A stretch of 64,000 nt of DNA from Methylovorus mays (GTDB lineage Bacteria; Pseudomonadota; Gammaproteobacteria; Burkholderiales; Methylophilaceae): contig NZ_JAJAVG010000004.1 in assembly GCF_020531915.1 (NCBI RefSeq), positions 248,001 through 312,000 on the forward strand, given 5' to 3'. A program made the translations under genes and the position numbers. Positions 53,442-56,176 of this stretch are shown piece by piece (position 1 is the first letter of the stretch; every line of letters starts with the position of its first letter). Below the pieces are notes generated by a model. The model was not told the origin of the DNA, did no database searches, and was given only the letters and a program-made list of their open reading frames with translations.

Positions 53442-53657
53442 TTTTTCTCCCGTTTATCAGTTGCCTGCGCGTTTGAGGATGGCTAAGCCAACTCCAGACA
53501 GGAGTATGGCGATGGGGATGCTGCGTGAACATCCTGCAAATGCAGGGGTAGGTGCTGCTTCGCCTGCAGGTCCACATAATTGATTAAGGGCGTGGATTAA
53601 GGGATGATCTGCGATAAGAGAAGGCTTTCACCACCTGCAGAAGGGGAGTGTTTGGAG

Positions 53658-54704
53658 ATGGATTTCACATCTGGCAATGCGCTGTTGGCGGATTTGTATA
53701 AGACGGCCGTGACCGCGAGTCCCCGTGTCTTTCAGCAAGAAGCGCTCAAACATCTGGAGCGCGTGATCGGGTTTGATCGGGCCTGGTGGGGCATCATGTC
53801 GCCTGGCAAGGCCGGGTTCGATTTGCTGAGCTCCTACCGCCATGAGCTACCCTTGGCGTTCGAAGAGCACTGGCATGCGGTCAAGAATGACGATGCGCTC
53901 GCACACGATGTCCATTTTCAGCCCAGAACTACGGTGCATTTCAATCGGCAGGCTCTCCACTCAACCCCTGGGCTCGCCGACCTCAATACCGGGCATGATC
54001 TCAGTCAGGCCTTGTGTACTTCGGTATTCCTGCCAAACCGCACCTCTTTTCTGTTTATTTCTCTGTTTCGCTCCGGGAGCCGCGCCCGCGCCTTTAAGGC
54101 TGGCGATATCCGGCTCAAGCAGTGGCTCACGCCGCATTTGTATTCCTGCTGGCGCACCAATCTGCTGGCAGATATCGAGCGCACGCGCCTGCCGAATAAA
54201 TGGCAGGACAAGGCGAGTGCATATGTTGATCGCCGTGGCAGCATTGTGTATGCCGACAGTGCCTTTGCCGAGTTTGTGAGCCAGGCATGGCCCGCCTGGC
54301 GTGGCGGTCGCTTGCCACATGCGTTAGTGGAGATGCTGGTTAGCAATCCGGCATCGTCTATCCATCTACCTATCGGCATCTACGTAAACCAGCAGCAGGC
54401 AGGCGGCCTGACACGGCTGGATATCGGGCGACCATCGCCACTGGACAAACTAACCAGACGCGAGCGCGAGGTGGCCCGAGGCTTTGCACAAGCGCATTCC
54501 TATAAGGAAATTGCGGCTGAGACCGGTTTGTCACCCGCCACCGTGCGCCATTATCTGCGGGGTATCTACGCCAAGCTTGCCATCAACGACAAGGCTGAGC
54601 TGGTCAGGCTGGTAGCCAGGCATGAGCTGGAGGTTGAAGTCCCGGTAGCGATCAAGGGCGCATTCACCCATGGGCTGGATATGGATTACTTGGGTAACGG
54701 GTAG
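53658..54704 (+). CDS. LuxR-type HTH regulator with unknown sensor domain
   Basis: A 348-residue protein. The C-terminal HTH (LTRREREVARGFAQAHSYKEIAAETGLSPATVRHYLRGIYAKL) is LuxR-like. The N-terminal 190 residues (HLERVIGFDRAWWGIM) and a middle part with YVDRRGSIVYADSAFAEFV resemble GAF/PAS sensing folds. It lacks a receiver domain and the acyl-homoserine lactone ligand pattern. AAGGGGAG nine bases upstream supports ATG 53658; an earlier in-frame ATG at 53604 has poor spacing. It is divergent from the symporter pair. Confidence 0.8.
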   Translation: MDFTSGNALLADLYKTAVTASPRVFQQEALKHLERVIGFDRAWWGIMSPGKAGFDLLSSYRHELPLAFEEHWHAVKNDDALAHDVHFQPRTTVHFNRQALHSTPGLADLNTGHDLSQALCTSVFLPNRTSFLFISLFRSGSRARAFKAGDIRLKQWLTPHLYSCWRTNLLADIERTRLPNKWQDKASAYVDRRGSIVYADSAFAEFVSQAWPAWRGGRLPHALVEMLVSNPASSIHLPIGIYVNQQQAGGLTRLDIGRPSPLDKLTRREREVARGFAQAHSYKEIAAETGLSPATVRHYLRGIYAKLAINDKAELVRLVARHELEVEVPVAIKGAFTHGLDMDYLGNG

Positions 54705-54724
54705 GAATTGCGCAATTAAATAGC

Positions 54725-54760
54725 ACATAATAAAACCGGCAAATGCCGGTTTTATTATGT
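54725..54760. terminator. Perfect 16-bp bidirectional terminator
   Basis: ACATAATAAAACCGGC and GCCGGTTTTATTATGT are perfect arms with an AAAT loop. T-rich on both strands, it can end the LuxR-type gene from the left and the exported-protein transcript from the right, after the heptamer repeat. Confidence 0.92.
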
Positions 54761-54781
54761 ATGAAAAGCTAGCTTGGAAAG

Positions 54782-54912
54782 CTTACAGCTTACAGCTTAC
54801 AGCTTACAGCTTACAGCTTACAGCTTACAGCTTACAGCTTACAGCTTACAGCTTACAGCTTACAGCTTACAGCTTACAGCTTACAGCTTACAGCTTACAG
54901 CTTACAGCTTAC
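54782..54912. repeat. Heptanucleotide tandem repeat, 18 perfect copies
   Basis: CTTACAG is repeated 18 times without a single change from 54782 to 54907, followed by a partial CTTAC (54908-54912). On the minus strand the unit is CTGTAAG. The first bases of the array form the TAA stop of the leftward gene, so the array starts at that stop and is likely transcribed as its 3' UTR up to the terminator at 54725-54760. It encodes nothing credible. Confidence 0.97.
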
Positions 54913-55457
54913 TGGCGGTAATCCGCTTTGGCTTTGTCCTTGCAGCTGGACTTCACCTCTCCGGCGTAGCTATCGCATTTTTTCAGGGCCACTTCGTAGT
55001 CAGATTCCATTTTCTTCTCTGCGGCTTCCTGACGGGCTTCCAGTGTTTTGCGGGTTGCATCTACATTGGCCATGCCGGTGCTGCGCTCCGCTTTGGCTTT
55101 GGTCAGGCACAGATCCTTGGCATCGCCGTTGTAGTCGTCGCATCTTTCCTTGGCGACTTCATACGTGCCTTTGACCTTTTCCTCTTCTGCCGAGATACGG
55201 GCATCCAGCGTGCCTTTCAGGTTGGCATCCAGATCAGCCAGGCCAGCTTCACGTTTGGCGGTTGCCTCGGCCTTGCAAACATCTTCCTGATTGCCGGAAA
55301 GCTTGCCACAGGCTTTTTTCTCCTGGTCATAAACGGCGTTAACGCGGTTCTTGCCATCTTCATATTCAGCTTTGGTAATGACCTGAGACCAGGCCTGGCT
55401 GCTCATCAGCATGGCCAGCAGGCCACCTAATGCCATTTTGTGTGCGATATTCATCAT
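54909..55457 (-). CDS. Exported protein with three Cys-pair repeats
   Basis: A 182-residue protein with a signal peptide (GGLLAMLMSSQAWS, cleavage about residue 24). The mature part is highly charged and helical, and holds three related units of about 55 residues. Each has two Cys ten residues apart: C50/C61, C106/C117 and C161/C172, each preceded by a Tyr (YDQEKKAC, YEVAKERC, YEVALKKC). Three disulfide-braced helical hairpins in the periplasm are likely. GGAG precedes the ATG at 55457. The csbD gene is 33 bp upstream in the same direction. Function unknown. Confidence 0.75.
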   Translation of the reverse strand: MMNIAHKMALGGLLAMLMSSQAWSQVITKAEYEDGKNRVNAVYDQEKKACGKLSGNQEDVCKAEATAKREAGLADLDANLKGTLDARISAEEEKVKGTYEVAKERCDDYNGDAKDLCLTKAKAERSTGMANVDATRKTLEARQEAAEKKMESDYEVALKKCDSYAGEVKSSCKDKAKADYRQ

Positions 55458-55490
55458 GTTGCTCCAGTGATTAAAGGGGTAACGCAATCG

Positions 55491-55685
55491 TTAGGTGTTG
55501 CGAAACTTTTCGATCTGGGCTTCGGCTTCTTCTTTCGAGATGCCATAGAGTTCTTGCAGCTTGCCTGCGAGCATGTCCTTGTTGCCTTTGATCTCTTCAA
55601 GATGATCATCGGTGAGTTTTCCCCATTGCTGACGAACCTTGCCGGTCAGCTGCTTCCAGTTGCCTTCGATTTGGTCCCAATTCAT
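55491..55685 (-). CDS. CsbD family stress protein
   Basis: A 64-residue protein: MNWDQIEGNWKQLTGKVRQ with WGKLTDDHLEEIKGNKDML. This matches CsbD, a small, abundant general-stress protein of unknown mechanism found in many bacteria. GAAAGGA precedes the ATG. It heads the transcript that continues into the Cys-repeat protein and the heptamer array. Confidence 0.9.
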   Translation of the reverse strand: MNWDQIEGNWKQLTGKVRQQWGKLTDDHLEEIKGNKDMLAGKLQELYGISKEEAEAQIEKFRNT

Positions 55686-55890
55686 GGTGATTCCTTTCGT
55701 TTATTGGATTTTTTAGCTGTTTTGGATCAATTGATCACTTGGCCATACTAGCCAGCACAGGCGCTTCAGGATGTCCTCAAATGGCTGAAACCAGCGTCAG
55801 AATGGGCTGTCAGCGAAAAAAAGCCCCCTTTGAAAGATTTCTCCTACAGGGGATTCAGAAAAATCTGTATGGCAGAAGGGGCAATATGGC

Positions 55891-55907
55891 CTACACTGGC
55901 GGTGTAG
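55891..55907 (+). promoter_or_regulatory. Short palindrome in the cold-shock gene leader
   Basis: CTACAC-TGGCG-GTGTAG has 6-bp arms and lies 66 bp before the start of the cold-shock gene. The 287-bp gap between csbD and this gene shows no gene; a long leader is common for csp mRNAs. Confidence 0.35.
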
Positions 55908-55972
55908 TACGTTTTTATTTCATCCCATCGTCATCGTTTGGCGATGTTTTTATCAAGTGCAGGAGACAGCAA

Positions 55973-56176
55973 ATGGCAACAGGTACCGTGAAGTGGTTTA
56001 ACGATGCAAAAGGTTTTGGCTTTATTACCCCGGACGATGGAGGCGAAGACTTGTTTGCGCACTTCTCGGCCATTGCCAGCAATGGCTTCAAGAGTCTGAA
56101 GGAAAACGAGCGCGTGAGTTTCGACATCACGACTGGTCCTAAGGGCAAGCAGGCATCGAACATTCAGAAGGCGTAA
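55973..56176 (+). CDS. Cold-shock protein (CspA family)
   Basis: A 67-residue OB-fold RNA/DNA chaperone. [12 protein letters not shown] (RNP1) and [10 protein letters not shown] (RNP2) are intact. AGGAGACAGCAA precedes the ATG at 55973. An in-frame opening extends about 230 bases upstream but lacks family similarity and belongs to the leader. A terminator follows. Confidence 0.96.

What the first reader, a model, noticed from the sequence alone, without database searches (positions are those of the whole stretch)
54782..54912. Eighteen perfect copies of a 7-bp repeat in the 3' region of an exported-protein gene
CTTACAG is repeated 18 times with no sequence change, which implies recent expansion or active maintenance by slippage or selection. 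The array begins within the stop codon of the Cys-repeat protein gene and ends before a 16-bp bidirectional terminator, so the mRNA should carry (CUGUAAG)n. Changes in copy number would not shift the reading frame of this gene. A role in mRNA stability, as a binding array for a protein or small RNA, or as a DNA element is possible; a neutral microsatellite is the null explanation.
Basis: partly seen in the sequence, partly recalled or inferred. Interest (0 to 1): 0.62.

Follow-up and report, generated by a model that had tools for sequence, protein, structure and literature searches.

The report
Heptamer microsatellite after a stop codon
A seven-letter DNA word next to a gene's stop signal is repeated 19 times in a row in this bacterium but not in its two held relatives of the same genus; it looks like an ordinary, recent copying stutter, of a kind found in many bacteria.

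Summary
The array is real: 54780-54912 is 19 perfect copies of AGCTTAC (133 nt; longest such tract in 100 simulations 20 nt). On the minus strand it is (GTAAGCT)19. Its first unit carries the TAA stop of a 181-aa exported-protein gene, and a terminator-like inverted repeat follows. It is the only array of this unit in the genome. Both held congeners keep the gene (98% and 94% identical) and the inverted repeat but have no array; one has exactly one GTAAGCT over the stop codon, the likely seed. Best reading: a lineage-specific heptanucleotide simple sequence repeat, grown by slippage in a tolerant 3' UTR, with no shown function. One observation stays partly unexplained: in other genomes CTGTAAG arrays start 0-10 nt after a stop codon in mRNA sense 24 times, in the opposite sense twice (17 against 2 after collapsing orthologues). 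Seeding by TAA stop codons is my preferred cause, with weak direct support; a post-stop RNA role is not excluded. Strain-level copy number and transcription could not be tested.

The parts
54780..54912 (-). Perfect heptamer array, (GTAAGCT)19 in mRNA sense = (AGCTTAC)19 on the + strand
54909..54911 (-). TAA stop codon of the exported-protein gene, inside the first array unit in mRNA sense
54909..55454 (-). Gene of a 181-aa exported protein with Cys repeats (signal peptide and repeats judged by eye); no Pfam or NCBIfam match at E 0.01
54726..54759 (.). Inverted repeat with 16-bp arms and AA loop, terminator-like on the minus strand; in the congeners the stems are 14 and 11 bp and hold runs of A and T
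55491..55685 (-). CsbD-like gene upstream on the same strand (36-bp gap), possibly co-transcribed (inference)
53604..54704 (+). LuxR-type regulator gene converging on the array from the other side

Best explanation
It is a heptanucleotide simple sequence repeat (microsatellite) that arose in this lineage from the sequence around the gene's own stop codon, CA-GTAAGCT, and grew to 19 units by replication slippage or unequal exchange. It lies after the last sense codon and before the terminator-like repeat, where length changes need harm neither protein nor termination, so it is tolerated; its perfection reflects youth and ongoing copying. Shown: the array, its position, its absence in two congeners, the single unit in one of them, and that heptamer arrays of other sequence are common. 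Inferred: slippage as the process, neutrality, and that the array is transcribed as a 3' UTR.
For: Both held congeners lack the array at the same locus while the gene, the inverted repeat and the end of the convergent regulator gene align, and neither holds two tandem units anywhere in its genome (0 of 2). G002 reads CAGTAAGCTTCAG where the window reads CA(GTAAGCT)19TTCC: exactly one unit over the stop codon. One array of this unit in the genome; no other heptamer array of 3 or more copies in a 400-kb sample of it. 0 of 398 other sampled genomes of the order and 0 of 273 others sampled from the class carry three tandem units. Heptamer arrays of other sequence are as common per unit type: AGTC-core heptads in 14 of 185 genomes, AGCT-core in 7 of 185, the window's own included. 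The literature calls heptamers the most abundant long repeat class in most genomes and proposes polymerase slippage (PMC4679880 introduction; PMC4692102 passages).
Against: Arrays of this unit in other genomes are strongly biased to lie just after stop codons in mRNA sense, which random birth plus tolerance does not fully predict; other stop-bearing heptamers in the same loci show it only weakly. Seeding is only weakly visible in this genome: single units lie near the gene end in 7 of 396 genes in sense and 5 of 396 in antisense. The scan was capped, so this unit could still be more frequent than other heptamers. Slippage itself was not observed. The genome is a draft of 11 contigs, so the exact copy number may be an assembly estimate.
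Confidence: 0.85

Rival explanations
1. A functional 3' UTR element: the transcribed (CUGUAAG)n folds into a rod of AGCU pairs separated by 3x3 internal loops just after the stop codon, and affects ribosome release, re-initiation or protection from 3' exonucleases.
For: In other genomes CTGTAAG arrays lie 0-10 nt after a stop in sense 24 times against 2 in antisense, 17 against 2 after collapsing two orthologous families. The array RNA alone folds at -52 kcal/mol, z -2.6 against shuffles. Structured RNA directly after stop codons has a proposed role in re-initiation (PMC7518266, start of abstract in the listing only).
Against: Both congeners lack the array; one array of this unit in the genome; the fold follows from the self-complementary AGCU core, and 4 of 200 shuffles fold as well; the copies are identical, so covariation cannot be tested; the AGCT core is not favoured over AGTC among heptamer arrays.
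Confidence: 0.08
2. A contingency (phase-variation) locus in which copy number tunes expression of the exported protein.
For: A long perfect repeat next to a surface or exported protein gene is a classic setting (recalled). Lengths differ between homologous loci elsewhere: at least 19.1 (cut at the locus edge), 4.4, 5.6, 8.6, 5.4 and 5.6 copies behind one Pseudoalteromonas gene family.
Against: The array is after the stop codon, not in the promoter, 5' UTR or coding frame; the frame is unaffected.
Confidence: 0.04
3. A DNA element bound by a protein, or part of a dispersed repeat network like the TAACTGA repeats of Beggiatoaceae.
For: Heptamer arrays were proposed as regulatory or binding elements elsewhere (PMC4679880 sections; PMC2700814 passages).
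Against: That network has 169 sets in one genome (abstract); here one array of the unit. The position is after a gene end, not before a start codon.
Confidence: 0.02
4. Assembly artefact in copy number.
For: Draft genome of 11 contigs; 133 bp is close to short-read length.
Against: The array lies inside an 894-kb contig and the sequence on both sides aligns to the congeners.
Confidence: 0.01

Closest known systems
Long simple sequence repeats with heptanucleotide units in bacteria (Mrazek et al. 2007, as cited in PMC4679880 and PMC4692102; not read itself)
   Same: Perfect 7-bp tandem repeat, longer than chance, outside coding frame, sporadic in phylogeny
   Different: This unit as a bacterial repeat did not turn up in my paper searches; one array of the unit in the genome
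GGGAATC heptamer repeats of Xanthomonas (Rehm et al. 2015, PMC4692102, section 10 read)
   Same: Heptamers, mostly intergenic, closer to the upstream neighbouring ORF (average 28 nt) than to the downstream one (160 nt); up to 26 units, longest perfect one 14
   Different: G-rich and quadruplex-forming, 186 and 183 sets in two genomes; here no G-runs and one array
TAACTGA direct repeats of Beggiatoaceae (MacGregor 2015, PMC4679880; abstract and sections 3, 8, 10, 24 read)
   Same: Heptamer containing TAA; long arrays occur in some Bacteroidetes whose relatives lack them in the same intergenic region
   Different: 169 sets in one genome, mostly upstream of start codons; six units of TAACTGA give no DNA fold, six of this unit fold weakly

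Membership tests
Bacterial heptanucleotide simple sequence repeat | Tandem copies of a 7-bp unit longer than expected by chance | tested here: met
   19 perfect copies; longest simulated tract 20 nt in 100 runs
Bacterial heptanucleotide simple sequence repeat | Sporadic, lineage-specific occurrence | tested here: met
   Absent in 2 of 2 held congeners; 0 of 398 other sampled genomes of the order
Bacterial heptanucleotide simple sequence repeat | Length polymorphism within the species | not testable with these tools
   One genome per species is held
Contingency (phase-variation) locus | Repeat in promoter, 5' UTR or coding frame so that length changes switch expression | tested here: not met
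   Array starts in the stop codon and lies downstream
TAACTGA-type repeat network | Many sets per genome | tested here: not met
   One array of this unit in the genome
TAACTGA-type repeat network | Sets just upstream of start codons | tested here: not met
   Between a stop codon and a terminator-like repeat, between convergent genes
Structured post-stop RNA element | Structure conserved among relatives | tested here: not met
   Both held congeners lack the array
Described RNA family (Rfam) | Match above the gathering score over the array | tested here: not met
   Two weak matches in 54400-56000, both below gathering scores, neither over the array

The most novel reading that the evidence does not exclude
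CTGTAAG arrays are a convergent 3'-end element: across several phyla they settle directly behind stop codons in mRNA sense because the post-stop (AGCU-GUA)n RNA rod is useful there, or because gene ends and translation termination promote their birth; the window array is a young example.
Probability: 0.08. Interest if true: 0.6.

Novelty: new member of a known kind. Interest (0 to 1): 0.2.

Why it matters
As it stands it is a possible strain-typing marker and a clean example of microsatellite birth at a stop codon: one unit in a sister species, 19 here. If the sense-strand bias behind stop codons is functional, or is a mutational effect of gene ends, it would give a testable rule for where heptamer repeats arise in bacterial genomes.

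Tried and rejected
Hairpin-driven expansion: the AGCT core is self-complementary and the array folds as a rod, so I expected palindromic-core heptamers to be favoured. The test did not show it: AGCT-core heptads in 7 of 185 genomes (own included; about 32 possible unit classes), non-palindromic AGTC-core in 14 of 185 (about 64 classes), palindromic TCGA-core in 1 of 185, non-palindromic CTGA-core in 18 of 185 by my count of the control columns. DNA folding is little better than shuffles (z -1.05 for the array, 27 of 200 shuffles as good; z -1.39 and -1.55 for six units).

Coding of the array: the plus strand is open in all frames (LTAYSLQ repeats), and the 218-aa plus-strand ORF is antisense to the gene. 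Its 221-codon open stretch in the window's locus is matched in the congeners only by stretches of at most 130 codons over the two positions probed, so I take it as spurious.

Cross-genome recurrence as evidence of function: the 116 stretches (capped, so a lower bound; several genomes give more than one) first looked striking. From the control rates of about 0.001 per unit class per genome, roughly 90-100 of 84,980 genomes would hold any given heptamer array. I therefore do not take the recurrence as special. The estimate is rough: the rates come from one class, with another collection and copy threshold, and the TCGA core lies several-fold below it and the CTGA core slightly above it.

The folding z-score of -4.5 for 54700-54960 was set aside because it includes the terminator hairpin.

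Full report
Observation. Tandem Repeats Finder reports one array in the window, 54780-54912, 19.0 copies of a 7-bp unit with 100% matches. String checks confirm AGCTTAC x19 and, within it, CTTACAG x18 at 54782-54907, then CTTAC. The longest perfect period-7 tract elsewhere in the window is 16 nt, and in 100 first-order Markov simulations of the window the longest was 20 nt. The array is not chance.

Anatomy. On the minus strand the order is CsbD-like gene (55491-55685), exported-protein gene (ATG at 55454), its stop codon TAA at 54911-54909, the array, and an inverted repeat with 16-bp arms (54726-54741 and 54744-54759). A LuxR-type regulator gene (53604-54704, plus strand) converges on it. 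The terminator scan finds a 17-pair stem on the minus strand with an interrupted T tail, CTATTTAATT; it found 4 terminator-like sites in the region against a mean of 2.0 in shuffles. In the congeners the stems are 14 and 11 bp with unbroken A and T runs.

The gene. The 181-aa protein has no Pfam or NCBIfam match at E 0.01. Homologues occur in 9 of 61 searched genomes, the window's own included.

Relatives. The two held genomes of the same genus carry the gene at 98% and 94% identity and align through the gene end, the inverted repeat and the end of the convergent gene, but lack the array. Tandem Repeats Finder finds nothing in either 3.5-kb locus, and two tandem units occur nowhere in either genome (0 of 2). 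G002 reads CAG-TAA-GCT-TCAG, that is one GTAAGCT over the stop; G001 reads CAG-TGA-GGT-TCAG; the window reads CA(GTAAGCT)19TTCC. The simplest history is one pre-existing unit at the stop codon and a recent expansion. Two units in tandem occur only here in the 3.01-Mb genome, and a 400-kb sample of that genome holds no other heptamer array of three or more copies. No other genome among 398 sampled from the order or 273 sampled from the class holds three tandem units (the two samples overlap a little).

The unit elsewhere. My script found 118 arrays in 114 of those 116 loci; L047 and L095 were missed because another heptamer array adjoins, and 8 arrays are cut at a locus edge. To ask whether this recurrence is special I searched heptad patterns in 185 genomes of the class: AGCT-core in 7 (own included), TCGA-core in 1, AGTC-core in 14, CTGA-core in 18 by my count. 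Per unit class the AGCT and AGTC rates are equal (about 0.001 per genome); TCGA is lower and CTGA a little higher. So a self-complementary core is not favoured in general, and the recurrence is of the order that any heptamer might show. The patterns do not require identical loops, so a few matches are degenerate.

A bias that remains. With genes taken as non-overlapping ORFs of 100 aa or more (not annotation), 42 of 118 arrays start between 25 nt before and 10 nt after a gene end in CTGTAAG sense, against 4 of 118 in the other sense. For 66 arrays of other heptamers in the same loci the numbers are 6 and 6, but there 'sense' is only the alphabetical orientation. Part of the bias is tautological, because CTGTAAG carries a stop in every frame and ends any ORF that runs into it. 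Restricting to stops that lie 0-10 nt before the array leaves 21, 22 or 24 against 2, by three ORF definitions, and 17 against 2 after collapsing two homologous Pseudoalteromonas families (two-sided binomial p 0.0007). When other heptamers are split by whether a sense carries a stop, 5 of 74 stop-bearing senses and 2 of 58 stop-free senses follow a stop at 0-10 nt: the same direction, but weak. Several first units look like degraded in-register copies with the stop as their TAA (by eye), which favours seeding by the stop codon. Direct support for seeding is weak: in the own-genome sample single units lie at gene ends in 7 of 396 genes in sense and 5 of 396 in antisense; the 19 against 2 of 647 in the other loci is contaminated by short or degenerate arrays. 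Gene-end placement is published for another heptamer (Xanthomonas GGGAATC, average 28 nt from the upstream ORF; PMC4692102 section 10).

Structure. The array RNA folds at -52 kcal/mol, z -2.6, with 4 of 200 shuffles as good; as DNA it has z -1.05 with 27 of 200 as good. Rfam gives two matches in 54400-56000 below gathering scores, neither over the array.

Literature. Whole-word searches for 12 of the 14 rotations of the unit gave 6 and 11 papers whose titles and abstract starts show no bacterial repeat of this unit. A search for six 13- to 14-mers of the repeat inside words gave 2 unrelated papers. Three broader searches on heptamer repeats and simple sequence repeats gave the papers cited here. 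[quoted passage not shown] PMC4692102 passages). Mrazek 2007 itself was not read.

Verdict. An ordinary, young heptanucleotide microsatellite in a presumed 3' UTR. Not testable here: copy-number variation within the species, transcription, and any effect on expression.

Noticed in passing
L094 (Psychrosphaera saromensis locus): Related arrays of TAAGCTA (9.4, 5.9 and 3.9 copies) lie at ORF ends in the same sense, one of them adjoining a CTGTAAG array.
   Followed up: partly
L075, L077, L086, L104, L113, L122: One Pseudoalteromonas gene family (C-terminus resembles PilC/GspF, recalled) is followed by a CTGTAAG array of different length in six loci: at least 19.1 (cut at the locus edge), 4.4, 5.6, 8.6, 5.4 and 5.6 copies.
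   Followed up: partly
genomes G432, G545, G547, G560 of the class: Dozens of heptad-pattern matches in one genome each, often of several sequences: heptamer-rich genomes worth a survey.
   Followed up: no
G000:C10:355-395 (L171): A 9-bp repeat, GCAGGGTCA, 4.6 copies, near a contig end of the window's genome.
   Followed up: no
window 54774-55430, plus strand: A 218-aa ORF antisense to the exported-protein gene runs through the array, which is open in all plus-strand frames; the open stretch is shorter in both congeners.
   Followed up: yes
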